Positions 2,497-42,950 of a DNA stretch of 47,362 nt are shown here, piece after piece; position 1 is the stretch's first letter, and the number at the start of each line of letters is the position of its first letter. The notes beneath the pieces are model-generated. The model saw only the letters and a program-made list of their open reading frames with translations. It did no database searches and had not been told where the DNA came from. Made by a program: the position numbers and the translations under genes. This DNA comes from Romeriopsis navalis LEGE 11480 (GTDB taxonomy: Bacteria; Cyanobacteriota; Cyanobacteriia; Leptolyngbyales; Leptolyngbyaceae), in the NCBI RefSeq assembly GCF_015207035.1, contig NZ_JADEXQ010000047.1, positions 1 to 47,362 on the forward strand, read 5' to 3'.

Positions 2497-3732
2497 CTAC
2501 TTTGAACTCGTCACCCGCCAATTCAGCTTCAAATTAATCCAGAAATTCCAGAACGTGACGATCACGATCGCCAACAGATTCGCCACATAAGCATTAATCC
2601 CAAACAGATTGAACAGTAGATTCAAAATCAACACATTCAACGTCAAACCCAACAAACAGATCAGATTAAACTTCACGAAACGCTTCACCCACTGCCCCAC
2701 CGACTTCTGCTGCCCCGCCAGATCCTTAAACGTCCACCGATCGTTCCAACAAAAATTATTCAAAATCGCCACCTCCGACGCAATAATCTTGCTGCGCGTC
2801 AGCCCCCAAGCCAACCCCAAAGGCGAAGCCGCCGAATGCAACAGATACAGCACCGCCATATCCACCACCACCCCACTCAACCCCACAAACCCAAACCGCA
2901 AAAACCGGCCGATCGGAAACGGAATCTGATTCCGCATCCGGCTCACCCGCCCCCGACTCCGCAACTTCAATAAGTGGTGAATATAATCCACATACTGCCG
3001 CGCCGTCACCTTACTCTCCCCCGCCTGCCGTTCCTGAAACACATACCCAACTTCCGCAATCCGATCGATCCGGCCCCGGCCCAAAGCTTCCAGCGAAATC
3101 TTATAGCCCTTCGGATTCAGCTCCACCCCCGCCAGCGCCCGCCGCCGCAACATAAAATAGCCACTCATCGGGTCACTCACCCGACCCACCACCGTCGGCG
3201 CAATCACCAACCCCAACAGCTGTGCCCCCCGCGACAACAACCGCCGCACAAACCCCCACTCACTAATCCCGCCACCCTCCACATGCCGACTGGCGATCAC
3301 AAAATCCGCCCCCGCATCGATCTCTCCCAAAAGCTGCAACAATACCTCCGGCGGATGCTGCAAATCCCCATCAATCACCCCAATCACCTCACCCCCCGCC
3401 GCCTGCCAACCGCGAATCACCGCCGTCGCCAAACCACGCTCCGTCTGCCGCCGGATCACCCTGACGCGTGGCAACTGCTCCGCCGCCCCCAACGCCACCT
3501 CCCAAGTGCGATCGGGACTATCATCATCCACCACGATAATTTCATAGCGATCGGCATAGGCCTCATCCAACAACGCCACCAACCGCTGCAACATCGCCCC
3601 AATATTGCGACTCTCATTAAACGTCGGAATCACCAACGAAAAATAGCAGGGTTGAACCATCACCGCATCCAGCTCCGGAATCACCAAAGCCCCAGACGGA
3701 TTTTCCAGGAGTTGCACGGAATTAAGCACCAT
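2497..3732 (-). CDS. DPM1-like GT2 glycosyltransferase fused to GtrA domain
   Basis: The N-terminal ~240 residues are a family 2 glycosyltransferase of the dolichol-phosphate mannose synthase type: FSLVIPTFNES opens the Rossmann-like fold, IIVVDDDSPDRTW is the nucleotide-binding strand, and IDGDLQHPP carries the metal-binding DxD. The C-terminal ~130 residues have four membrane helices and the GtrA signature (FLRFGFVGLSGVVVDM, then NNFCWNDRWTFKD). The enzyme should transfer a sugar from a nucleotide donor to polyprenyl phosphate on the cytoplasmic face; the GtrA part is thought to help move the lipid-linked sugar across the membrane. Start choice is uncertain: ATGs at 3732 and 3660 both have purine-rich upstream sequence, and a longer frame to 3780 is also open. 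The sugar cannot be deduced. Confidence 0.88.
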   Translation of the reverse strand: MVLNSVQLLENPSGALVIPELDAVMVQPCYFSLVIPTFNESRNIGAMLQRLVALLDEAYADRYEIIVVDDDSPDRTWEVALGAAEQLPRVRVIRRQTERGLATAVIRGWQAAGGEVIGVIDGDLQHPPEVLLQLLGEIDAGADFVIASRHVEGGGISEWGFVRRLLSRGAQLLGLVIAPTVVGRVSDPMSGYFMLRRRALAGVELNPKGYKISLEALGRGRIDRIAEVGYVFQERQAGESKVTARQYVDYIHHLLKLRSRGRVSRMRNQIPFPIGRFLRFGFVGLSGVVVDMAVLYLLHSAASPLGLAWGLTRSKIIASEVAILNNFCWNDRWTFKDLAGQQKSVGQWVKRFVKFNLICLLGLTLNVLILNLLFNLFGINAYVANLLAIVIVTFWNFWINLKLNWRVTSSK

Positions 3733-3805
3733 GAAATTAAACCGTTGCCCTCGACAATCTACAAAAATCAGCCAACCCATTCGCCACGACGAACCATCAT
3801 CCAGC

Positions 3806-6920: not shown

Positions 6921-7211
6921 ATGCTCGATCGTGATGCCGTCCATAAAGTTGCCCACCTCGCCCGGCTCAAATTAACCGAGGCGGAGGAAACGCAATTCGC
7001 CACACAGCTAAGCGGCATCTTAGATTACGTTGAGCAACTCAATGAATTGGATGTCAGCGATGTCGAGCCCACAACTCGGGCGATCGACGTCGCCAACGTT
7101 GTGCGTGAAGACAAACTCCAACCGTGGCAAGAACGCGAAGATTTATTAGATTGTGCACCCGATCGCGACGGCGAGTTTTTCCGCGTCCCCAAAATTTCGA
7201 CGAATAGCTAA
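6921..7211 (+). CDS. gatC: Aspartyl/glutamyl-tRNA amidotransferase subunit C
   Basis: 96 residues starting MLDRDAVHKVAHLARLKL, the usual GatC opening, with the typical QLSGILDYVEQLNELD helix and the DVEPT turn leading to the extended C-terminal segment that wraps between GatA and GatB. GatCAB converts mis-charged Glu-tRNA(Gln), and where needed Asp-tRNA(Asn), to the correct aminoacyl-tRNA in the cytoplasm. Cyanobacteria lack GlnRS and need it. The longer frame from 6729 overlaps the previous gene and is not used. gatA and gatB are not in the window. The next gene begins 21 bp downstream, so read-through into the membrane-protein paralogues is possible. Confidence 0.95.
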   Translation: MLDRDAVHKVAHLARLKLTEAEETQFATQLSGILDYVEQLNELDVSDVEPTTRAIDVANVVREDKLQPWQEREDLLDCAPDRDGEFFRVPKISTNS

Positions 7212-7232: not shown

Positions 7233-9041
7233 ATGATGTTTCGTGCCGGCATTTACGCCCTGATCGCCATGACAGGGCTATTTTTGTTTCTCAAGGAAAC
7301 CTTAGTCAGTGGACTACAGAACATTCCTGGAGATTTAGGCGATGCATGGCTAGTCAACTATTTTTTTGAGCATTCCTGGCAACTCATCAGCAATCCGCAA
7401 TACGTCGGCAGCTTATTTTCGCCAGCATTTTTCTATCCCCAAGTCGATATGTTGGCCTTATCGGAAAACATGTTCGGCACCGCCCCCATTTACTGGCTAT
7501 TTCGCGGATTCAACCAACCCGCAACCGCATTTGCCCTGTGGGTGATTGCCATTTGCCTGCTCAATTTCAGTGCGATGGTATGGACATTGCGTCAATGGCG
7601 TATCCATCCGGTACTAGCGAGTTTCGGGGGCTTATTAATGGCTTATTCGGCGCAACGGGCTGTCCGCATCGGCCATGCCCAACTTTTGCCGCAATTTTTC
7701 ACCCCGATCGCGTTATGGTACCTCTGGCAATTTTTTCAAAAGCCCACCAAACGTCGATTTATCATCCTCTTAAGTCTGAGCTATTGGCAGATTCTCAGTG
7801 GCGTTTATCTCGGTTGGTTTTTGTTATTTGGCATCGGTCTGAGTAGCCTCATCAGCCTTGTCATCATCCCCAAACTCCATACCAAGTTATGGCAGTTTGG
7901 GCGACAAAAATGGCGCTTCACCATCGCCACAATGCTCATCTGGGCCGCTGGGTTAGTCTGGCTGTTTACGCCCTATGTCAAAATCAAGGCGATTATTGGC
8001 GATCGTTCCTATCGCGAAGTTGAGTCCATGCTGCCCCGACTCACATCTTGGGTCATGGCACCACCATGGGAAAACATCTGGTCACCACTCTTCCACAAAT
8101 TTAGTGCTGACTTGCCGATGGCCCACGAACATACTATTTTCCTGGGCACTGTCTTATATGTGCTGACGGCTTGGACTGCCTATGTCCTGATCGCTAAACG
8201 CAGCACTTGGCTATCCGCCGATCGGCGCCAGATTGTTCTAATTTGTCTATCCAGCGCTAGCATTTTGTTTGTCCTAGCGCTCTATTGGCCCAATGGCATG
8301 AGTGCTTGGTGGTTTGTTTACCAAGTGGTGCCGGGCGCGTCGGCCATCCGCGTCGTCACCAGAATTGCCAGCTTAATTAATATCTACCTGCTGATTGCCG
8401 GACTGATTACCCTCGACAGTTGTCTCGCCGCACGGAAACTGCCCGCCGCTTTCAAGGCAATGTTCCTCGCACTGCTGCTCATCTTGGGCACGATCGAACA
8501 GTCCACCTCCTTCCAGCACCGCCACATTACAACACCACAACGCGCACAACGCGAGATCACCCAACTGCTCCGCCAAGATTGCCAATTAGCTTACTACCAG
8601 TTTCTCCCGTTCACCGATTTACCACCCAAAACACAGACACAAATCACCGACCAATCATCGCCTGTCGCGTTTCCTCGCCAGTACCCAGGCATTCCCCTGA
8701 CACTGCGCTGGAGCGTGGCACAGTTGCTCATGATGTGGGCCGGCATTAGTGCCAACGTCCCCGTCGTGAATGGTTATTCGGGCAGCTTCCCCCCTGGATC
8801 ACCCAATTTCTATACGCACTGGGATGTTCCAAAAATCTTGCAGTGGCTTGACAACACACCTGTTAACCCAAAGCAACCGATCGCACAAATCCACACCTTT
8901 TGCTACATCACAGAACGCCTTCACAACACACCACCATCATTCACAAACAATGATTGGACGACAACGAGCGTCCAATCAGAAAATTATGTGATGCAAGTTT
9001 TCCGGCGCAACAGCCACAGGACAAACCCGGCTAATTCGTAA
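7233..9041 (+). CDS. GT-C-like polytopic membrane protein, paralogue 1
   Basis: 602 residues with about ten to twelve hydrophobic helices and a soluble C-terminal segment after residue ~410. The first non-cytoplasmic loop holds IPGDLGDAWLVNYFFEHSW and then LSENMFGTAPIYWLFR. Acidic residues in the first loop after TM1 are the hallmark of GT-C glycosyltransferases, which use polyprenyl-linked sugars outside the membrane. Other conserved points are GHAQLLPQFFTPIALW, VPGASAIRVVTRIASL, NVPVVNGYSG and a late CYITER. It is the first of three consecutive paralogues. GT-C assignment is by architecture only; I cannot name a Pfam family or a substrate. It starts 21 bp after gatC. Confidence 0.85.
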   Translation: MMFRAGIYALIAMTGLFLFLKETLVSGLQNIPGDLGDAWLVNYFFEHSWQLISNPQYVGSLFSPAFFYPQVDMLALSENMFGTAPIYWLFRGFNQPATAFALWVIAICLLNFSAMVWTLRQWRIHPVLASFGGLLMAYSAQRAVRIGHAQLLPQFFTPIALWYLWQFFQKPTKRRFIILLSLSYWQILSGVYLGWFLLFGIGLSSLISLVIIPKLHTKLWQFGRQKWRFTIATMLIWAAGLVWLFTPYVKIKAIIGDRSYREVESMLPRLTSWVMAPPWENIWSPLFHKFSADLPMAHEHTIFLGTVLYVLTAWTAYVLIAKRSTWLSADRRQIVLICLSSASILFVLALYWPNGMSAWWFVYQVVPGASAIRVVTRIASLINIYLLIAGLITLDSCLAARKLPAAFKAMFLALLLILGTIEQSTSFQHRHITTPQRAQREITQLLRQDCQLAYYQFLPFTDLPPKTQTQITDQSSPVAFPRQYPGIPLTLRWSVAQLLMMWAGISANVPVVNGYSGSFPPGSPNFYTHWDVPKILQWLDNTPVNPKQPIAQIHTFCYITERLHNTPPSFTNNDWTTTSVQSENYVMQVFRRNSHRTNPANS

Positions 9042-9230
9042 CCAAAGCCGATGCAGCGCCCAATTCTCCCAGCTCTGTGGTGAGCGGATGTACGTCAACC
9101 AGTATGATGACTCTGAATCAACTTATCCGCGTATTAAAGCGGATAAGCCGCTGCCGCCAGCGCAGCAACACCACATTGAGGGAGCAACATCTCTGCAGAT
9201 TCCTCATCTCGTAACTCAAGTAGAACAACT

Positions 9231-11015
9231 ATGTTTGCTAAAGGCTGCCTTTACGTCGTCATCTGTAGCATTGGTCTACTGCTCTTGTTAGAAAACACGG
9301 TATTGAGCGGCCTCACGCAAGTACCGGGGAGTTTTGGCGATGCTTGGCTCAACAACTACTTCCTTGAACATTCATGGCAAGTAATTAGCAATCGGCAATA
9401 CGCTGGCAGTCTTTACTCACCCATATTTTTCTATCCGCAATCAAATGTCTTAGCACTATCCGAGAACCTATTTGGGACCGCCCCGATTTATTGGTTATTT
9501 CGGGTATTCAGCAAACCCAATTTCGCTTTTATCCTCTGGTTTATTACAAATACGATTCTCAATTTTGCCGCCACGGTATTTACTTTACGGCGCTTTCGAG
9601 TCCGCCCCATCCTCGCTTGTCTCGGCGGTCTGCTGATGGCCTATGCCGCACAGGATGCCATTCGAATGAGCCATGCTCAGCTCATCCCCCAATTTTTCAC
9701 CCCATTGGCTTTATATGCCATCTGGCGGTTTATTCAGCAACCCTCAAAACGCCTGCTGGCAATCATCTTAGGTCTCACCTATTGGCAAGTTTTATCAAGC
9801 ATTTATCTGGGGTGGTTTTTGTTATTCGGCATTGGCATTACATTACTGATTACGCCTCTAGTCGTCCCTGGAACCACAACTAAGATCTATCGCTTCATCC
9901 GCCAGCATTGGTTATTTAGCAGTATCGCGATCGCAATTTGGGGTGGCGGCTTAGCCGTCCTCTTAGCGCCATACTTACAGGCTAAATCGGTCGTGGGCGC
10001 AAGGCCCTACTCCGAAATCATCCTCACACTCCCTCAATTATCCTCATGGTTCTTGACACCGCCTTTCCAAAATATCTGGTCACCCATTTTCTATATCTTG
10101 GCGCCGCTCCTGCCCCAGGAGCGCATCGATGAACATATCCTGTTCTTAGGCATGACCGTATATGTGCTGGCTGGTTGGACCGCTTATGTTTTGCTCACAA
10201 AACGCGCCACCTGGCTAAATCCCGAATCGCGCCAGTTAGTTACCGTAACGCTGGGCAGTGCCGCGATTCTCTTCTTGCTTTCCTTATCCATCTCCAGTGA
10301 TGGCCTGAGCGCTTGGTGGTTCGTCTACCGTTTTGTTCCAGGGGCTTCCGTGATCCGGGCCGTAACCCGAATATCCAGCCTCATTAATATCTATCTATTG
10401 ATTGCGACATTAGTCATGCTCGATCGCCGCCTCGCCGCCAAACCCATGCATCGTGGCTTGAAAGCAGCATTTTTAGCATTTTTGCTGTGCTTTGCCACGA
10501 TCGAACAATCAACCGGCCAGTTAAGTCGCGACATTCAGGCACACCAAGTCGCACAGCAAGAACTCAGCCAACTACTCAAACAGAATTGCCAACTGGCTTA
10601 TTACCAATTCCCCCCATCCGCGGCTTTAGGTCAACTTACCGCCACCCAAACGGAAAATTTAGAACGCTTCAAAATATTCCCGCGCAATCACCCAGAAGTC
10701 CCGACCCAACTGGACTGGATCGCGGCACAATTTCTGATGATGTTTGCCGCGATCGACGTCAACATTCCTGTCGTCAACGGTCATTCCGGTAGCACACCAG
10801 AGGGTTTGCCCCACTTTAATACAACCTTTGACCTGCCCAAAATGCTCAATCTGATTGAGCAACGATCACCTCAAGAAATCCAGCAATTTTGCTACATTAC
10901 CGAACGATGGCGCGAAGACACTCTATCCACACCTAGCAAACCTTGGAGCCAAAACATCATCCAATCAGAACACTACACCGTGCAACAAATCAGTAAAACC
11001 AATCCACCCTCGTAA
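9231..11015 (+). CDS. GT-C-like polytopic membrane protein, paralogue 2
   Basis: 594 residues, collinear with paralogues 1 and 3 over the whole length. Shared blocks are GDAWLNNYFLEHSWQ, GSLYSPIFFYPQ, ALSENLFGTAPIYWLFR, SHAQLIPQFFTPLAL, VPGASVIRAVTRISSL, NIPVVNGHSGS and CYITER. One difference stands out: the first acidic residue of the loop motif IPGDxGD is Ser here (VPGSFGD), while the second Asp is kept. If that Asp is catalytic, this copy may differ in activity or specificity. The start ATG at 9231 follows a short 189-bp spacer. Likely inner-membrane; substrate unknown. Confidence 0.85.
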   Translation: MFAKGCLYVVICSIGLLLLLENTVLSGLTQVPGSFGDAWLNNYFLEHSWQVISNRQYAGSLYSPIFFYPQSNVLALSENLFGTAPIYWLFRVFSKPNFAFILWFITNTILNFAATVFTLRRFRVRPILACLGGLLMAYAAQDAIRMSHAQLIPQFFTPLALYAIWRFIQQPSKRLLAIILGLTYWQVLSSIYLGWFLLFGIGITLLITPLVVPGTTTKIYRFIRQHWLFSSIAIAIWGGGLAVLLAPYLQAKSVVGARPYSEIILTLPQLSSWFLTPPFQNIWSPIFYILAPLLPQERIDEHILFLGMTVYVLAGWTAYVLLTKRATWLNPESRQLVTVTLGSAAILFLLSLSISSDGLSAWWFVYRFVPGASVIRAVTRISSLINIYLLIATLVMLDRRLAAKPMHRGLKAAFLAFLLCFATIEQSTGQLSRDIQAHQVAQQELSQLLKQNCQLAYYQFPPSAALGQLTATQTENLERFKIFPRNHPEVPTQLDWIAAQFLMMFAAIDVNIPVVNGHSGSTPEGLPHFNTTFDLPKMLNLIEQRSPQEIQQFCYITERWREDTLSTPSKPWSQNIIQSEHYTVQQISKTNPPS

Positions 11016-11464
11016 CCCAAGCTGATAATTTACGCCACGGCATGCGGTGTCCCGCGCTCAAATCAAGTTCAAGCTGACATCACCAGCATTCATCGACATT
11101 CATCCAACGACGAATCTAGCAACTGGGCATCCAGCCGAGCCATACCAATGAAAACCATACATCCAATCAATCAATCGCCAGCGTAGAACCATCATCACAA
11201 CCAATAAAGCCTTAAATAATCTCAAACACAAGACGCAGATTAACTTCAACAAAACACGCGGATAAACGTGGCCATCCGGCTTTATGCTACGTTGAGTCAT
11301 CATCAATCATAGTTCAGCCCCTCCCGGAGTATCTCGGCCAGAACACTTGAGCCTGATTGACCTCAGCCCGCAGGCAAACTACGGCCACACACTACGCCAA
11401 ATTTCAGCCGATCGTGATTTCGGCTTCGACCGAATCAAACATTGCCATTGGGGGATAGCTAAAG
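11016..11464. other. Intergenic gap between paralogues 2 and 3
   Basis: 449 bp with no convincing gene, RNA or terminator. A 68-codon minus-strand frame (11100-11306) encodes a hydrophobic but repetitive peptide without a ribosome-binding site and is judged spurious. No fragment of the paralogous gene is recognisable. It may hold the promoter for paralogue 3. Confidence 0.5.
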
Positions 11465-13273
11465 GTGCGCTTTCGGTATTTGTTCTATAGCCTCATCGGC
11501 ATTCTGGGTCTCTATCTACTTTTTCCACAAACCCTCAGAAGTGGACTCCTGATGATTCCTGGTGATGCAGGAGATGGACGCCTTAACAACTATTTCTTAG
11601 AACATTCCTTTCAGTGGATTAGCAATCCCAACTATCGAGGCAGTTTACTATCACCCATCTTTTTCTATCCCCAGCCAACGGTCTTACCTTATTCCGAGAA
11701 CCTATTCGGCACGGCCCCAATTTACTGGTTATTTCGACAAATCACCGAACCAGTTAAAGCATTTACCCTTTGGATGTTTGCGCTGAGCTTCCTAAATTTT
11801 GGGGCAATGGTATTCACCCTACGCCGATGGCAAATTCACCCGGTCATTGCTAGTTTAGGCGGTTGGCTATTTGCCTTTTCACTGAATCGCGCGGTACGAC
11901 TCACCCATGCCCAATTAATCCCACAGTTATTTACACCACTCGCGCTTTTATCGCTCTGGCATTTCCTTACCCGGCCTAGCAAAAAGGCTTTCTGCGGGTT
12001 ATTAATATTCAGCTATTGGCAAATTTTGTCAGGCATCTATTTAGGCTGGTTTCTATTCTTCAGCATGGCCTTATTGAGCGTACTGACGCTGGTTCTAGTG
12101 CCGCAATCGAGAAAAAACATTTATCGATTTTGCCAACAATCCACCCGTTTGGTCGTTGTCGGTAGCGGTCTTTGGCTCAGTGGGCTCGTACTCTTACTCT
12201 ATCCCTATGTGCAAGTTGGACAAGTCTTTGGCAAACGTTCCTACGCCGAAGTTACGAGCATGCTACCGCGCCTTGCTTCTTGGTTTGTCACCCCGGCCCA
12301 AGGCACGATTTGGAGTGCCATATCCGCGCCCTTTAGCCAAGGATTACCAGCATTACATGAGCATCAGATTTTCCTCGGGGGCGTGACCTATATTCTGTCA
12401 GCTTGGACGCTGTATATTGTCCTCCGCCCGCCAAACTGGATTACGCCCGATCGTTACCAAGCCATCCGCGTCTTTTTTGGTGCCGCTGTTCTGATGTTTT
12501 TGATTTCCCTGATTTGGCCCAATGGCAGTAGTGCCTGGGTTGGGGTTTATCGTTTCGTTCCCGGCGCCTCAGCCATGCGAGTCGTCACGCGGATTGCCAG
12601 TTTGATTCAAGTCAATTTGCTCATCGCCAATCTGCTGGTGCTCGATAGCTTTTTTAAAGCACAGCGATACCGGCGACTAGCGCAGGCCTTGCTACTCAGT
12701 GGGTTATTGTCGATCGCGATATTCGAGCAACATACAACGCTTGCCTATGTCTACCATCAAGATGAAATTCTCCCGCAAGAACAGGCCTTGGAGCAAGTCT
12801 TACAACAGCGCTGTCAAGTTGCTTATTACGCCTTGCCCACGGTACTGAAACAAGCATCAACGGGGGGGGATCTGGTTTTTCCCAAATACTCTGCACCCTA
12901 TCCAGTCAGCTACACCGGCCATTTATCCCCGCGCCTCATCTGGATTCTGGCACAAGTGTCGGTGATGTGGAGTAGCTTGAATGCAAATGTCCCCATCATC
13001 AATGGTTACTCCGGCCATATTCCCCCCACCTTCCCACGCACTGAAGCAAATTGGAGCGTGGCCCACACGCTAACTTGGCTGGAACAACAAGAGCAACAGC
13101 AAGCACAAACACCAACAACAGCATTTTGTTATATTACTGATCGCGTCAACCCAACTCAGAACACAGCGCCCGTGGGCAATTGGCAGCTCCAAAGTCAGCA
13201 AAGCACGGCACTTTACAACATCCAAATCTGGCAAAAATCACGCCAATCAATTACCGGCTCAACTGGCCGATAA
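11465..13273 (+). CDS. GT-C-like polytopic membrane protein, paralogue 3
   Basis: 602 residues from a GTG start at 11465, chosen because the next residues (RFRYLFYSLIGILGLYLL) align with the first helix of the other two paralogues. It keeps both loop acids (IPGDAGDGRLNNYFLEHSF), the PYSENLFGTAPIYWLFR block, LTHAQLIPQLFTPLAL, VPGASAMRVVTRIASL, NVPIINGYSG and CYITDR. The C-terminal soluble part is Gln-rich (LEQQEQQQAQ). It is separated from paralogue 2 by 449 bp, so it may have its own promoter. It converges with the methyltransferase gene, 13 bp away. A lipid-linked sugar transferase role is inferred from topology only. Confidence 0.85.
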   Translation: MRFRYLFYSLIGILGLYLLFPQTLRSGLLMIPGDAGDGRLNNYFLEHSFQWISNPNYRGSLLSPIFFYPQPTVLPYSENLFGTAPIYWLFRQITEPVKAFTLWMFALSFLNFGAMVFTLRRWQIHPVIASLGGWLFAFSLNRAVRLTHAQLIPQLFTPLALLSLWHFLTRPSKKAFCGLLIFSYWQILSGIYLGWFLFFSMALLSVLTLVLVPQSRKNIYRFCQQSTRLVVVGSGLWLSGLVLLLYPYVQVGQVFGKRSYAEVTSMLPRLASWFVTPAQGTIWSAISAPFSQGLPALHEHQIFLGGVTYILSAWTLYIVLRPPNWITPDRYQAIRVFFGAAVLMFLISLIWPNGSSAWVGVYRFVPGASAMRVVTRIASLIQVNLLIANLLVLDSFFKAQRYRRLAQALLLSGLLSIAIFEQHTTLAYVYHQDEILPQEQALEQVLQQRCQVAYYALPTVLKQASTGGDLVFPKYSAPYPVSYTGHLSPRLIWILAQVSVMWSSLNANVPIINGYSGHIPPTFPRTEANWSVAHTLTWLEQQEQQQAQTPTTAFCYITDRVNPTQNTAPVGNWQLQSQQSTALYNIQIWQKSRQSITGSTGR

Positions 13274-17451: not shown

Positions 17452-18243
17452 ATGAAACTCTCCGTCATTATTCCTTGCTATAACGAAATTAAAACCATTG
17501 AGCAGGTAATCGTGGCGGTTAAAGCATCCCCCATCCAGCCCTTAGAAATCATCGTGGTCGACGACGCATCGACGGATGGCACCCGCGATCTCCTCAGCAG
17601 CACCATCGTCAACCAGGTCGATCAAGTCCTATATCATCGGCAGAATAAGGGCAAAGGCGCAGCACTACGCACTGGATTTCAAGCCGCCACGGGTGACGTG
17701 GTCGTTGTGCAAGATGCCGACCTAGAATATGACCCCCAGGAATATGGCTTACTGATGGAACCAATTATCCACGGACAAGCCGACGTCGTTTTTGGTTCAC
17801 GCTTCCAAGGTAGTCGCCCCCACCGCGTGGTGTATTACTGGCACATGGTAGGGAATCGAATTTTGACCACACTTTCGAATATGTTCACCAACCTCAATTT
17901 GAGCGATATGGAAACCTGCTATAAGGCTTTCCGCCGTGAGGTGATTCAGTCCGTCGATATCGAAGAAAATCGCTTTGGATTTGAACCGGAAATTACCGCC
18001 AAGGTCGCCAAAATGGAATGCCGAATCTACGAAGTCGGCATTTCTTACTACGGCAGAACCTATGACGAGGGTAAGAAAATTGGCTGGAAAGACGGCTTCC
18101 GAGCAATCTTCTGCATTGTGAAATATAATTTGTTTCGTTCTCGCAAACAGTATCGCAACCGTCACTTAAAGTACCTAGCAAGCGATACATCCGCGACACA
18201 ACCCCCCAGCAACTTAGTCGGCAGCAATGGCTCCACATATTAA
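17452..18243 (+). CDS. GT2 glycosyltransferase, DPM1-like, without membrane domain
   Basis: 263 residues. The domain starts immediately ([19 protein letters not shown]), with [16 protein letters not shown] for nucleotide binding, [16 protein letters not shown], and [14 protein letters not shown] as the DxD metal site. MetCysTyr-Lys ([11 protein letters not shown]) and [12 protein letters not shown] match dolichyl-phosphate mannose/glucose synthase-like enzymes that charge polyprenyl phosphate. No transmembrane helices follow, unlike the GtrA fusion at 2497-3732. It lies just after an IS remnant and is followed by a strong bidirectional terminator. The donor sugar is unknown; GDP-mannose is possible given manC in the window, but that is inference. 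Confidence 0.88.
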
Positions 18244-23356: not shown

Positions 23357-24433
23357 TCATAGCAAGTCCTGATGCGCTGGCATTTCTCGCAACGTCTTCA
23401 GCACCTGCTTAATGTCCTGAGTGCGATCTTTTTTCACCACGAGGGTAACGTTACCATCGCGCACAATCACGGTATCTTCCATGCCAATCGTCACAATTAA
23501 ATCATCATCACTGGTCGAGTAGAGCAGCGATCCCGCCGTATCCAGCCCGACATGCTGGGCCAGCTCAACGTTCGGGGCATCCGACTTGCGGAGACGGTCG
23601 ATCGCCCCCCAATCACCCAAATCATCCCAACCGAATTTCACCGGCATCACCGTCGCTTTTGTGGTTTTTTCCATCAAAGCGTAGTCAATGCTATTTTTCG
23701 GCACCTCCCCATAGGCCGCAATTCCCTTTTCCTTGAGGGGATTCAGAATCTCCGGCGCATGCTTTTCAAGTTCTTGTAAAACGGTCGATGCCTTAAAAAC
23801 AAACATGCCACCATTCCAGCTAAAGCGGCCACTCTGGATAAATTCCTCGGCGGTTTGACGATCGGGCTTCTCGGTAAATCGGCTGACCTTATAGGCGGGA
23901 TAACCCTCGCCATATTCCCCCAAGGCATCCCCCTGCTCAATATAGCCATAACCCGTTGAAGCGTAGGCCGGGGCAATCCCTAAGGTAACAATCACATCAT
24001 CTTTCACTGCCATTTCGGCAGCAGCAGCCAACGTCGCTTGAAAAATATCCAGGTCCGCAATCCAGTGATCCGCAGGAAAGAAGCCTAATACTGCATCTTC
24101 GCCGTAGCGCTTCGCCACTTCCAAAGTGCTCCAAGCCAACGCTGGGGCCGTATCACGCCCCTCTGGCTCAACCAACAGATTCGCATCCGGCAGCTCCGGC
24201 AACTGCGCCTGCATACCGGATTCCAGATGTGCCGCAGTCACGACCCAGAGATTTTCCCAGCCCGAGGACGTCGCCAATAACCGATCGGCCGTTGCCTGTA
24301 ATAAGCTGCGATCGCCCCCATCCAAACATAAAAACTGCTTTGGACGACTGCGACGACTCAGGGGCCAAAAGCGCTCACCTTTACCACCGGCAAGAATCAC
24401 GGGAATCAGGGTCGGAGTAGTTGATTGGGACAT
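23357..24433 (-). CDS. manC: Mannose-1-phosphate guanylyltransferase
   Basis: 358 residues from the ATG at 24433, with another in-frame ATG at 24442. The nucleotidyltransferase signature PVILAGGKGERFWPLSRRSRPKQFL is visible in two parts (VILAGGKGERFWPL and RPKQFLCL), followed by VEPEGRDTAPALAWS, FFPADHWI, RFTEKPD and FSWNGGMFVF. It makes GDP-mannose from mannose-1-phosphate and GTP in the cytoplasm. There is no C-terminal isomerase domain; the protein stops where type II PMI fusions continue. Its product feeds gmd (41976-42950) and possibly the GT2 enzymes. Single gene, convergent with usp. Confidence 0.93.
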   Translation of the reverse strand: MSQSTTPTLIPVILAGGKGERFWPLSRRSRPKQFLCLDGGDRSLLQATADRLLATSSGWENLWVVTAAHLESGMQAQLPELPDANLLVEPEGRDTAPALAWSTLEVAKRYGEDAVLGFFPADHWIADLDIFQATLAAAAEMAVKDDVIVTLGIAPAYASTGYGYIEQGDALGEYGEGYPAYKVSRFTEKPDRQTAEEFIQSGRFSWNGGMFVFKASTVLQELEKHAPEILNPLKEKGIAAYGEVPKNSIDYALMEKTTKATVMPVKFGWDDLGDWGAIDRLRKSDAPNVELAQHVGLDTAGSLLYSTSDDDLIVTIGMEDTVIVRDGNVTLVVKKDRTQDIKQVLKTLREMPAHQDLL

Positions 24434-24907
24434 AAAATTCAATTGCTTGCTGACGCTAATAAGTAGGATGGCTAAGGTGCATCGGCGGCAATCGCCGCAC
24501 CAACAAAGTTATTCCAGCATGTATCACACTGAGTTACAGCATGAGATGACAGACCTATGGGACAATACCCCAAATCTTTATTGCGGGAAGGTGGGTGATG
24601 AACCGGACATATTACGGATTTTTGAGTTGAGTCATTTTATACTTGCATTCTCAAAAAACACTGTAGAATTCCATAGGTTAATTCCCCAAATGTAGAAAAT
24701 TTGTCCGGAATCACCGGCCTCAGCCATGAGGAACAGTATGGATAGATGGCACGTCCTGCAGGCGTAGACGATTGGAAAATCAGAATTCCCGTCGGTCTGG
24801 CCAGTAAACGAGGCATGATTGATCCAAATAAATCTAGCGCCATTTAAATGATTCGGTAATGGCTGTATCGTCAATGCCCCAAGAGTTGAACTAAGGATAA
24901 GTGGCCT
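24434..24907. other. Divergent intergenic region manC / LCP gene
   Basis: 474 bp. A plus-strand frame from about 24522 to 24695 would encode 57 residues (starting MYHTELQHEMTDLW), but it lacks a clear ribosome-binding site and known homology, so it is not called. The region otherwise looks like promoter DNA for both flanking genes. Confidence 0.4.
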
Positions 24908-41975: not shown

Positions 41976-42950
41976 CTAGGAGGCAGAGCGATCGGTCAAT
42001 TCCTTCAGATCATTTTCGACCATCAACTCCACTAAATTCTTGAACGAATAACGGGGTTTCCAGTCCAGCTCTTTGTGGATTTTATCGATCGAACCGGCCA
42101 ACAAGACCGCCTCATCCGGACGGTAAAACGCCGGGTCTACCGAAACATAATCCTGCCAATTTAAGCCCACATAATCAAAGGCATACTTCACCAGATCCTT
42201 CACCGAATTCACGGCACCACTGGCGATGATGTAGTCTTCCGCCTGCTCCTGTTGCAGCATCAGCCACATCGCTTCCACCACATCCTGGGCAAAACACCAA
42301 TCACGCCGGGCATCCAAGTTACCAAGCTTTAGCTCTTTATCCAAACCAAGCTTAATCTTGGCTGCGCCTTGAGTGATCTTGCGAAACACAAACTCCGAAC
42401 CCCGCCGAGGCGATTCATGGGTATAGGTAATCCCACAGCAGGCATACAGGTTGTACTGATTGCGATAGTTAATCGTCATCCAGTGGGCATAGGCCTTGGC
42501 CACACCATAGGGATTCCGCGGCCGAAACGCCGTGCGCTCCGTCTGGGGCGATTCATCCGGCTGACCAAACACTTCACTACTTGAGGCTTGGTAGAACTTC
42601 GCATCAGGCTTACAGCGGCGAATTGATTCGAGTAATCGCGACACCCCGAGGGCCGTATATTCTGCCGTCAACGCCGGTTGGGTCCAAGACAATGGCACAT
42701 AGCTTTGAGACGCCAAGTTATAAATCTCATCCGGGGCCGACTCGGTAATCACATCCATCAGCGATGACTGATCAAGTAGGTCCCCCGAGAGGATTTTCAC
42801 TTTATCTCCAAGATGTCGAATCCGGCCCAAATTACTGGAACTCGATCGACGCACCAGTCCATAGACTTCATACCCTTTGGAAACAAGCAGTTCGGCCAGG
42901 TAGGAACCATCTTGTCCAGTCAAACCCGTGATCAGCGCTTTTTTTGTCAT
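41976..42950 (-). CDS. gmd: GDP-mannose 4,6-dehydratase
   Basis: 324 residues. NADP site ALITGLTGQDGSYLAELL, then VYGLVRRSSSSN. Catalytic elements are SSSEVFGQ and YGVAKAYAHW (YxxxK), and the family block ITYTHESPRRGSEFV. NLDARRDWCFAQDVVEAMW follows. It converts GDP-mannose to GDP-4-keto-6-deoxymannose, the precursor of fucose or rhamnose. Its substrate is made by manC at 23357-24433. The partner reductase or epimerase (fcl or rmd) is not visible in the window. Length normal. Confidence 0.96.
   Translation of the reverse strand: MTKKALITGLTGQDGSYLAELLVSKGYEVYGLVRRSSSSNLGRIRHLGDKVKILSGDLLDQSSLMDVITESAPDEIYNLASQSYVPLSWTQPALTAEYTALGVSRLLESIRRCKPDAKFYQASSSEVFGQPDESPQTERTAFRPRNPYGVAKAYAHWMTINYRNQYNLYACCGITYTHESPRRGSEFVFRKITQGAAKIKLGLDKELKLGNLDARRDWCFAQDVVEAMWLMLQQEQAEDYIIASGAVNSVKDLVKYAFDYVGLNWQDYVSVDPAFYRPDEAVLLAGSIDKIHKELDWKPRYSFKNLVELMVENDLKELTDRSAS

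What the first reader, a model, noticed from the sequence alone, without database searches (positions are those of the whole stretch)
7233..13273. Three tandem GT-C-like membrane protein paralogues
Three ~600-residue genes in a row share all landmarks (GD...EHS loop, SEN-FGTAPIYWLFR, HAQL-PQ-FTP, VPGAS..R.VTRI, NGYSG, CYITxR). Loop acids suit GT-C enzymes using polyprenyl-linked sugars, but I cannot assign a known family. Divergence (about half the positions by eye) says the triplication is old and kept, so the copies probably differ in substrate.
Basis: partly seen in the sequence, partly recalled or inferred. Interest (0 to 1): 0.62.

Follow-up and report, generated by a model that had tools for sequence, protein, structure and literature searches.

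The report
Three tandem GT-C sugar transferases
A cyanobacterium carries three side-by-side copies of a membrane enzyme of an unnamed family that most likely moves sugars from a lipid carrier onto molecules outside the cell membrane, with the three copies probably serving different targets.

Summary
In detail: three intact + strand genes (7233-9041, 9231-11015, 11465-13273; 602, 594, 602 aa), 43-53% identical, the only copies found in the genome. No Pfam or NCBIfam family fits and no PDB sequence matches. AlphaFold2 on a 25-sequence alignment models copy 1 confidently (pTM 0.91); its best structural matches are GT-C enzymes. An Asp invariant in 25 of 25 sits at the tip of the long helix after TM1, where class A GT-C enzymes keep the catalytic Asp. 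In 18 of 31 loci elsewhere, a polyprenyl-phosphate-sugar-synthase-like GT2 gene lies within 2.1 kb upstream on the same strand; the genome's only close copy of it lies 4.2 kb downstream of the trio. So this is most likely the transferase of a three-component extracytoplasmic glycosylation system. The trio is a lineage-specific expansion (100/99 support), not seen in the other genomes surveyed. That the copies differ in acceptor is plausible but untested; the sequence hint for it is weak. A new member of a known kind: an unnamed GT-C family.

The parts
7233..9041 (+). GT-C-fold membrane protein, copy 1 (602 aa)
   Evidence: ORF; AlphaFold2 pLDDT 88.8, pTM 0.91; best structural matches are GT-C enzymes
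9231..11015 (+). GT-C-fold membrane protein, copy 2 (594 aa); fold inferred from copy 1
   Evidence: ORF; 53% identical to copy 1; 17 of 19 family-invariant columns kept; not folded itself
11465..13273 (+). GT-C-fold membrane protein, copy 3 (602 aa, GTG start); fold inferred from copy 1
   Evidence: ORF; 46% identical to copy 1; 17 of 19 family-invariant columns kept, one of the two misses being the GTG start read as V; branches first in the trio; not folded itself
7341..7343 (+). Asp37 codon of copy 1, candidate catalytic residue
   Evidence: Invariant in 25 of 25; first residue of helix 37-53 after TM1
9339..9341 (+). Asp37 codon of copy 2
   Evidence: Same alignment column
11573..11575 (+). 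Asp37 codon of copy 3
   Evidence: Same alignment column
8502..9014 (+). C-terminal extramembrane domain of copy 1 (residues 424-594) with the invariant Asn513-Gly514
   Evidence: Folded alone: pLDDT 81.6, pTM 0.80; no clear PDB relative (Foldseek none at E <= 0.001, best VIA-align Z 6.0)
17452..18243 (+). GT2, inferred polyprenyl-phosphate sugar synthase and donor supplier (inferred partner)
   Evidence: PF00535; best solved match dolichol-phosphate mannose synthase 5mlz, E 2.1e-19, then ArnC-type enzymes; 71-78% identical to the GT2s near 16 cyanobacterial orthologues; next best in own genome 32%
2497..3780 (-). GT2 fused to a GtrA domain; alternative donor synthase and candidate flippase (context, not shown to belong)
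   Evidence: PF00535 + PF04138; the only GtrA-domain match in the genome

Best explanation
Each of the three genes encodes a GT-C class A glycosyltransferase of the cytoplasmic membrane. Proposed mechanism: (i) the GT2 at 17452-18243 loads a sugar (identity unknown, a hexose at a guess) from a nucleotide sugar onto polyprenyl phosphate on the inner face; (ii) a flippase, either the EamA/SMR-like homologue elsewhere in the genome or the GtrA domain at 2497-3780, turns the lipid-linked sugar outward; (iii) the GT-C enzyme binds the lipid-phosphate-sugar between its membrane helices and first outer loop, Asp37 takes the catalytic role, and the sugar passes to an acceptor held by the C-terminal outer domain. 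The single ancestral GT-C gene was triplicated in this lineage; the copies probably share one donor but glycosylate different acceptors or positions. Shown by computation: family, fold of copy 1, invariant Asp, GT2 linkage in relatives, monophyly of the trio. Inferred: the reaction, the use of this particular GT2, the flippase, the role of the C-terminal domain, and the division of labour.
For: Model pTM 0.91, pLDDT 88.8. Foldseek: 11 PDB matches at E <= 0.001; 10 of the 11 titles name an oligosaccharyltransferase, the other a translocon complex. VIA-align: Pmt4 Z 18.6 (361 aligned, 4.3 A), yeast OST chain 8agc_A Z 17.1 (445, 6.0 A), AftD Z 15.1 (452, 5.0 A), PglB Z 14.3 (431, 5.1 A), AftA Z 14.3 (456, 4.3 A), ArnT Z 14.1 (441, 6.1 A). 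Asp37 and Glu46 invariant in 25 of 25. A GT2 of the window's type lies 0-2.1 kb upstream on the same strand in 18 of 31 loci (16 of 19 cyanobacterial, 2 of 12 other): next to the GT-C gene in 10, one gene away in 8. In the window's family 8 of 9 GT-C-bearing genomes hold the GT2 at E <= 1e-60 against 8 of 33 without GT-C (one-sided Fisher p 0.0008, not corrected for relatedness). The one GT-C genome without the GT2 has its GT-C gene in two pieces. G262 has the same locus as G169 with only a PMT_2-like protein beside the GT2, as expected if the GT2 feeds exchangeable transferases. The window GT2's best solved relatives are DPMS and ArnC.
Against: In the window the GT2 is not in an operon with the trio: 4.2 kb and three genes lie between, two of them on the other strand. 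No GT2 of this type (tblastn E 1e-25) is in the fetched stretch of 13 of 31 loci, including the sister lineage Alkalinema (where it is on another contig) and 10 of 12 non-cyanobacterial loci. The GT2 also occurs in 8 family genomes without this GT-C (one of them at only 46% identity), so it is not dedicated to it. Foldseek's alignments are loose (TM 0.38-0.48, rmsd 10-20 A in the 11 best), and warns that helical models can reach Z about 14 by common arrangement alone. Donor sugar, flippase and acceptor are unidentified. A fold match does not prove activity.
Confidence: 0.66

Rival explanations
1. The genes are oligosaccharyltransferases: they transfer a whole glycan from a lipid pyrophosphate carrier to protein, as STT3/PglB do, rather than one sugar from a lipid monophosphate.
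For: Foldseek's 11 matches at E <= 0.001 are OST, PglB or AglB entries and one translocon complex; OST chains reach Z about 15-17 over 430-456 residues.
Against: VIA-align ranks Pmt4 (monophosphate donor, recalled) as high or higher, with AftD, ArnT and AftA close behind, so structure does not separate donors. The linked GT2 resembles monophosphate-sugar synthases (DPMS, ArnC).
Confidence: 0.12
2. The three copies form a hetero-oligomer with one shared reaction, like Pmt1-Pmt2 or EmbA-EmbB, rather than three enzymes with separate acceptors.
For: Structural matches include the Pmt1-Pmt2 and EmbA-EmbB complexes named in the titles; all three copies stay intact and adjacent.
Against: Of 23 other GT-C-bearing genomes searched whole, 22 have one gene (one of them in two pieces) and one, G415, two weak partial matches (G116 and G157 left out), so an obligate hetero-oligomer is not ancestral.
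Confidence: 0.12
3. The copies are redundant (dosage), or one or more has lost catalysis and serves as a scaffold.
For: GT-C folds without reported transferase activity exist (a GPI-transamidase subunit appears at Z 7.5; its lack of activity is recalled).
Against: Asp37 and Glu46 are kept in all three; each keeps 17-18 of 19 family-invariant columns; 43-53% identity is far for mere dosage.
Confidence: 0.08
4. The donor is made by the GT2-GtrA fusion at 2497-3780, not by the GT2 at 17452-18243.
For: It is in the same window and carries the only GtrA domain found in the genome.
Against: The GT2 that accompanies the family in 18 of 31 loci is the 17452 type (47-78% identical to it); the window copy and the Nostoc flagelliforme one, the two scanned with Pfam, have no GtrA domain.
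Confidence: 0.15

Closest known systems
Three-component / multi-component transmembrane glycosylation systems (GtrABC; CsbB-GtcA-YfhO; GT136 system of Citrobacter youngae)
   Same: A polyprenyl-phosphate-sugar synthase, a flippase and a GT-C transferase (PMC8035078 and PMC11127046, passages); here GT2 near GT-C in 18 of 31 loci, with an EamA-like small protein nearby in five Nostocales loci and one Chroococcidiopsidaceae locus (one scanned by Pfam)
   Different: In the window the components are not in one cluster; the three proteins match no Pfam model; donor and acceptor unknown; three GT-C copies against one close GT2
Mycobacterial arabinofuranosyltransferases AftD / AftA (GT-C class A)
   Same: Fold match Z 15.1 and 14.3 over about 450 residues; 2 of 25 family members show a weak hit to GT-C_AftD, best E 0.0011
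   Different: The window proteins have no hit to PF11847 (genome search); about half the length of AftD
Protein O-mannosyltransferases (Pmt4, Pmt1-Pmt2) and oligosaccharyltransferases (OST, PglB, AglB)
   Same: Highest structural scores (Z 13-19)
   Different: 7-11% identity over the VIA-align alignments; no Pfam PMT, PMT_2 or STT3 match
ArnT with ArnC
   Same: Fold Z 14.1; the partner GT2's next solved matches after DPMS are ArnC-type enzymes
   Different: No sequence match to a PDB chain; acceptor need not be lipid A

Membership tests
GT-C superfamily, class A (GT-CA) | Conserved multi-helix membrane module of the GT-C fold | tested here: met
   Copy 1 model pTM 0.91; the 44 entries listed at Z >= 8 are GT-C glycosyltransferases by their titles (class recalled for some). 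Copies 2 and 3 inferred from 53 and 46% identity
GT-C superfamily, class A (GT-CA) | Catalytic Asp at the tip of juxtamembrane helix 1 after TM1 (PMC12041299, passages) | tested here: met
   Asp37 invariant in 25 of 25, first residue of helix 37-53, which follows helix 2-19 and a short helix 21-25. Taking helix 37-53 as juxtamembrane helix 1 is inference; position in a cavity not measured
GT-C superfamily, class A (GT-CA) | Glycosyl transfer from a polyprenyl-phosphate-linked donor | not testable with these tools
   Needs biochemistry
Three-component glycosylation system | Polyprenyl-phosphate-sugar synthase partner | tested here: inconclusive
   GT2 near the gene in 18 of 31 loci; in the window it lies 4.2 kb away, not in an operon; activity unknown
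Three-component glycosylation system | Dedicated flippase (GtrA, SMR/EamA, MATE or Wzx type) | tested here: inconclusive
   Own genome: one EamA/SMR-like homologue at 46% on another contig and one GtrA domain in the window; neither linked to the trio. MATE and Wzx types not searched
AftD (PF11847) | Match to the family profile over its cut-off | tested here: not met
   No hit for the three proteins at E <= 1; no match in the genome
PMT / PMT_2 / YfhO / Glyco_transf_22 Pfam families | Match over the gathering score | tested here: not met
   No hit for the three proteins at E <= 1; in the 25-member scan YfhO appears once at E 0.09, PMT and Glyco_transf_22 not among the 18 families listed
CAZy GT136 | Sequence relatedness to ORF12 of C. 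youngae O1 | not tested
   No GT136 model or sequence was fetched

The most novel reading that the evidence does not exclude
This is a so far unnamed GT-C family, spread over Cyanobacteria, Myxococcota, Planctomycetota and Bacteroidota, that acts as the exchangeable transferase of a GT2-driven extracytoplasmic glycosylation system; in this genome one donor synthase serves three paralogues that attach the same sugar to three different acceptors, a natural specificity series in one organism.
Probability: 0.3. Interest if true: 0.6.

Novelty: new member of a known kind. Interest (0 to 1): 0.42.

Why it matters
The enzymes that build cyanobacterial surface sugars outside the membrane are, to my knowledge (recalled), largely unassigned. 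A polyprenyl-phosphate-glucose synthase from Synechocystis has a solved structure (PMC4728340, passages), yet the listings of the library searches made here show no paper on a cyanobacterial GT-C partner. This family gives a concrete candidate with a recurrent partner gene, and the trio offers a built-in comparison of acceptor specificity on one fold.

Tried and rejected
Search of genome contigs with copy 1 alone found no relative; the family alignment was needed. Viral contigs: 28 pattern matches, none a relative. Phage protein families: none. Plasmids: one distant relative (32% over 62%) in a polysaccharide-like gene set of a deltaproteobacterial plasmid.

The hit in genome G116 (E 1.8e-4) is spurious: the ORF is an acetyl-CoA-synthetase-like AMP-binding enzyme. 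It was dropped, leaving 13 of 388 class genomes including the window's own. G157 (E 7e-4) was not followed up and may be spurious too. In the class and phylum searches only the best 3 candidates per genome were scored, so presence and copy number there could be low; in the family search, where all candidates were scored, the same 9 genomes came up.

L070 holds only two fragments of the gene and was left out of the alignments and of the 31-locus count; L067, truncated, was left out of alignment A4 and of the tree but is in the 31. L036, L040, L039 and L042 are the same contigs as L055, L054, L056 and L057 (contig lengths agree) and were left out of the tree and of the 31; L037 and L043, partial, were left out of the tree but are in the 31.

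Profile comparison with the PMT_2-like neighbours matched only the extra C-terminal Ig-like domain, not the membrane part; with the unassigned membrane proteins near the GT2 in two other genomes there was no match. The C-terminal domain folded alone has no clear solved relative. A second ORF at L050:13232-13840 that first clustered with the family is a separate small protein with only the Ig-like domain, not a second GT-C copy. I considered a claim that the GT2 decays in genomes without GT-C (in-frame stops listed) and dropped it, because intact ORFs cover two of the three loci concerned (L123, L125) and the third was not fetched. No direct repeats of 20 bases or more, tandem repeats, Rfam families or tRNAs mark the duplication. 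Promoter-like sites are fewer than in shuffles (2 against 8.7) and terminator-like sites about as many (9 against 8.0), so operon structure is open. A simple hydropathy scan found only 7-9 segments, fewer than the helices of the model, and was not used for topology.
Full report
OBSERVATION. Three complete + strand genes lie at 7233-9041, 9231-11015 and 11465-13273 (602, 594 and 602 aa). They start 21 bases after the stop of a gatC gene (start taken at 6921; family) and are separated by gaps of 189 and 449 bases. The next gene is a convergent methyltransferase. Pairwise identity is 53.0, 45.8 and 42.8%. A search of the 6.47 Mb draft genome with copy 1, and again with a 25-sequence profile at E up to 10, finds these three and nothing else.

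FAMILY. The three proteins reach no Pfam or NCBIfam model (two chance-level Pfam hits at E 0.45 and 0.041, under the cut-offs), and no PDB sequence matches copy 1 (one chance hit, E 0.45) or the family profile. A scan of genome contigs with a 10-sequence alignment brought 24 loci: cyanobacteria (among them Nostoc, Anabaenopsis, Phormidesmis, Leptolyngbya, Alkalinema, Geitlerinema, Dendronalium), Myxococcota, a Planctomycetota MAG, Bacteroidota, an unnamed bacterial bin (RUG14125) and one truncated copy in Dyella. The family is patchy: 13 of 388 genomes of the class, own included, after one spurious hit is dropped; 9 of 42 of the window's family; 17 of 386 in a draw from the phylum, of which one (G157) is marginal. 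The draws overlap, and in the two large ones only three candidates per genome were scored. Leaving out G116 and G157, 23 other genomes bear the gene: 22 show one gene (in G004 it comes in two abutting pieces, a frameshift or an assembly error) and G415 shows two weak partial matches. Among the contig loci one ORF per fetched stretch matches the profile, apart from L070, which holds two fragments.

FOLD. AlphaFold2 on copy 1 with 25 sequences gave pLDDT 88.8 and pTM 0.91. Foldseek against the PDB gave 11 matches at E <= 0.001; 10 of their titles name an oligosaccharyltransferase and one a translocon complex. Its alignments are loose (TM 0.38-0.48, rmsd 10-20 A), and ranks 12-24 are again GT-C enzymes before unrelated transporters begin. 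VIA-align gave Pmt4 Z 18.6 (361 residues, 4.3 A), a yeast OST chain Z 17.1 (445, 6.0 A), AftD 15.1 (452, 5.0 A), PglB 14.3 (431, 5.1 A), AftA 14.3 (456, 4.3 A), ArnT 14.1 (441, 6.1 A). Of 998 chains aligned, 48 reach Z 8, and the 44 entries listed at that level are GT-C glycosyltransferases by title. The tool warns that helical models can reach about 14 by common arrangement; the case rests on the top values lying above that and on the list being of one kind. Rows within one Z unit are tied, so the ranking does not name the closest relative. For class A GT-C enzymes, PMC12041299 (passages) states that a catalytically essential Asp sits at the tip of juxtamembrane helix 1. In copy 1, Asp37 is the first residue of helix 37-53, which follows helix 2-19 (TM1) and a short helix 21-25, and is invariant in 25 of 25 sequences, as is Glu46. 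Also invariant are Arg91, Gln150, Tyr192, Arg377 and, in the C-terminal domain, Asn513-Gly514. Whether these line one cavity was not measured (no coordinates in the script box). The C-terminal domain alone folds (pTM 0.80) but has no clear solved relative.

PARTNER GENE. Comparison of neighbours showed one recurrent partner: a GT2 of about 215-320 aa as called. With the window's own copy (17452-18243) as query, it lies upstream on the same strand, 0-2.1 kb from the GT-C gene, in 18 of 31 loci outside the window: 16 of 19 cyanobacterial and 2 of 12 others (47% identity in a deltaproteobacterial MAG, 57% in a Bacteroidia MAG). In 10 it is the next gene; in 8 one gene stands between (a methyltransferase, an epimerase, an EamA-like or a PMT_2-like gene). 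The script labels three overlapping pairs 'downstream', but their coordinates show the GT2 upstream with a short overlap. Two of the misses (L064, L065) have under 2.1 kb of upstream sequence. Three Bacteroidota loci (L066, L068, L069) are near-identical, so the loci are not all independent. The window's GT2 is 71-78% identical to the 16 cyanobacterial ones, while the next best GT2 of its own genome is 32%. Its best solved relatives are dolichol-phosphate mannose synthase (E 2.1e-19) and ArnC-type enzymes; no NCBIfam cut-off is reached, the best being AglJ, 127 of 325 bits. The sugar is therefore not identified. In the window's family the GT2 (E <= 1e-60) occurs in 8 of 9 GT-C-bearing genomes and 8 of 33 others, one of the latter at 46% identity (p 0.0008, not corrected for relatedness). 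The exception, G004, is the genome whose GT-C gene is in two pieces. In G262 the locus corresponds to that of G169 (9 of 11 genes have best hits at 93-99%, 7 of them in the G169 stretch) but has only the PMT_2-like protein next to the GT2 and neither this GT-C nor its methyltransferase neighbour. The GT-C gene thus behaves as an exchangeable cassette beside a donor synthase. Other neighbours vary: an ABC exporter of the Wzm/Wzt type in Alkalinema and a GT22-like protein in Bacteroidota (cluster in five loci, one scanned).

TRIPLICATION. In a maximum-likelihood tree of 31 sequences the three copies form a clade (100/99), copy 3 branching first and copies 1 and 2 later (100/99), with Alkalinema RU_4_3 as sister (96/94); copy 3 is among the rows flagged for unusual composition, and the deeper forks outside the cyanobacteria join long branches. 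So the expansion is specific to this lineage. Distances between copies (about 0.9 to 1.6 changes per site) are as large as between orthologues of different cyanobacterial families, but no congeneric genome is held, so old and fast cannot be separated. All copies look functional: 18, 17 and 17 of the 19 columns invariant in the other 22 sequences are kept (one miss of copy 3 is merely its GTG start read as V). Copy 3 is more diverged from copies 1 and 2 in the C-terminal domain (35 and 32%) than its core identity (53 and 49%) predicts from 55 orthologue pairs (z -1.96 and -1.77, not independent; 5 of 55 orthologue pairs are at -1.5 or lower); copies 1 and 2 show no such excess between them (z 0.23). 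Against this as a mark of copy 3, copies 1, 2 and 3 are all low against the 11 orthologues (mean z -0.98, -2.13, -1.51), so the domain may simply evolve faster in this lineage. It is a weak hint of acceptor-side change, no more.

MECHANISM. The evidence fits the scheme reviewed in PMC8035078 and shown for pentofuranoses in PMC11127046 (outline and passages): a synthase loads polyprenyl phosphate, a flippase turns it, and a GT-C enzyme transfers the sugar outside. Here the GT-C identity is well supported, the synthase is supported by linkage in relatives, and the flippase is open: the genome has one EamA/SMR-like homologue (46%, another contig) and one GtrA domain, fused to a different GT2 in this same window (2497-3780). 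One close synthase for three transferases suggests a shared donor with different acceptors; that is inference. GDP-mannose genes lie further along the window (mannose-1-phosphate guanylyltransferase-like 23357-24442, 290 bits against a cut-off of 373; GDP-mannose 4,6-dehydratase-like 41976-42950, 397 against 415), but they are too generic to name the donor.

LITERATURE. Searches for GT-C with cyanobacteria and polyprenyl, undecaprenyl or three-component terms listed 0, 2 and 4 papers, none by title or abstract start on a cyanobacterial GT-C partner of this kind; the library holds only open-licence papers. GtrB of Synechocystis, a UndP-glucose synthase, is known (PMC4728340, passages).

VERDICT. 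A real, lineage-specific set of three paralogues of an unnamed GT-C family; membership in GT-C class A is met by the fold of copy 1 and by the catalytic Asp position, while the tested Pfam subfamilies are not met. New member of a known kind.

Noticed in passing
window 2497-3780 (-): GT2 fused to a GtrA domain, the only GtrA-domain match in the genome.
   Followed up: partly
L043:8239-9552 (G004): The GT-C gene of G004 comes in two abutting pieces, and this is the one GT-C-bearing genome of the family without the GT2.
   Followed up: partly
L041:6654-12110 versus L120:5882-8502: Two related genomes share this locus (9 of 11 genes with best hits at 93-99%), but one lacks the GT-C gene and its methyltransferase neighbour: a presence/absence cassette.
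   Followed up: partly
L035:6462-8312, L041:10197-12110: PMT_2-like neighbours carry an Ig/NBR1-like C-terminal domain that resembles the extra domain of several GT-C orthologues; the window copies lack it.
   Followed up: partly
L050:13232-13840 (+): A 202-aa protein with a lipoprotein-like start (by eye) carries that same Ig-like domain on its own, 1.2 kb after the GT-C gene; 52% identical to the domain of that GT-C.
   Followed up: partly
L122:8499-10163, L125:7751-9316: Unassigned membrane proteins (554 and 521 aa) near the GT2 in genomes without this GT-C; no Pfam match and no profile match to this family; they look GT-C-like by eye only.
   Followed up: partly
window 41976-42950 (-), 23357-24442 (-): GDP-mannose 4,6-dehydratase-like and mannose-1-phosphate guanylyltransferase-like genes, both below NCBIfam cut-offs.
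   Followed up: no
L126 (CP026659.1): Distant GT-C relative on a plasmid of a cockroach-gut deltaproteobacterium, in a polysaccharide-like gene set.
   Followed up: no
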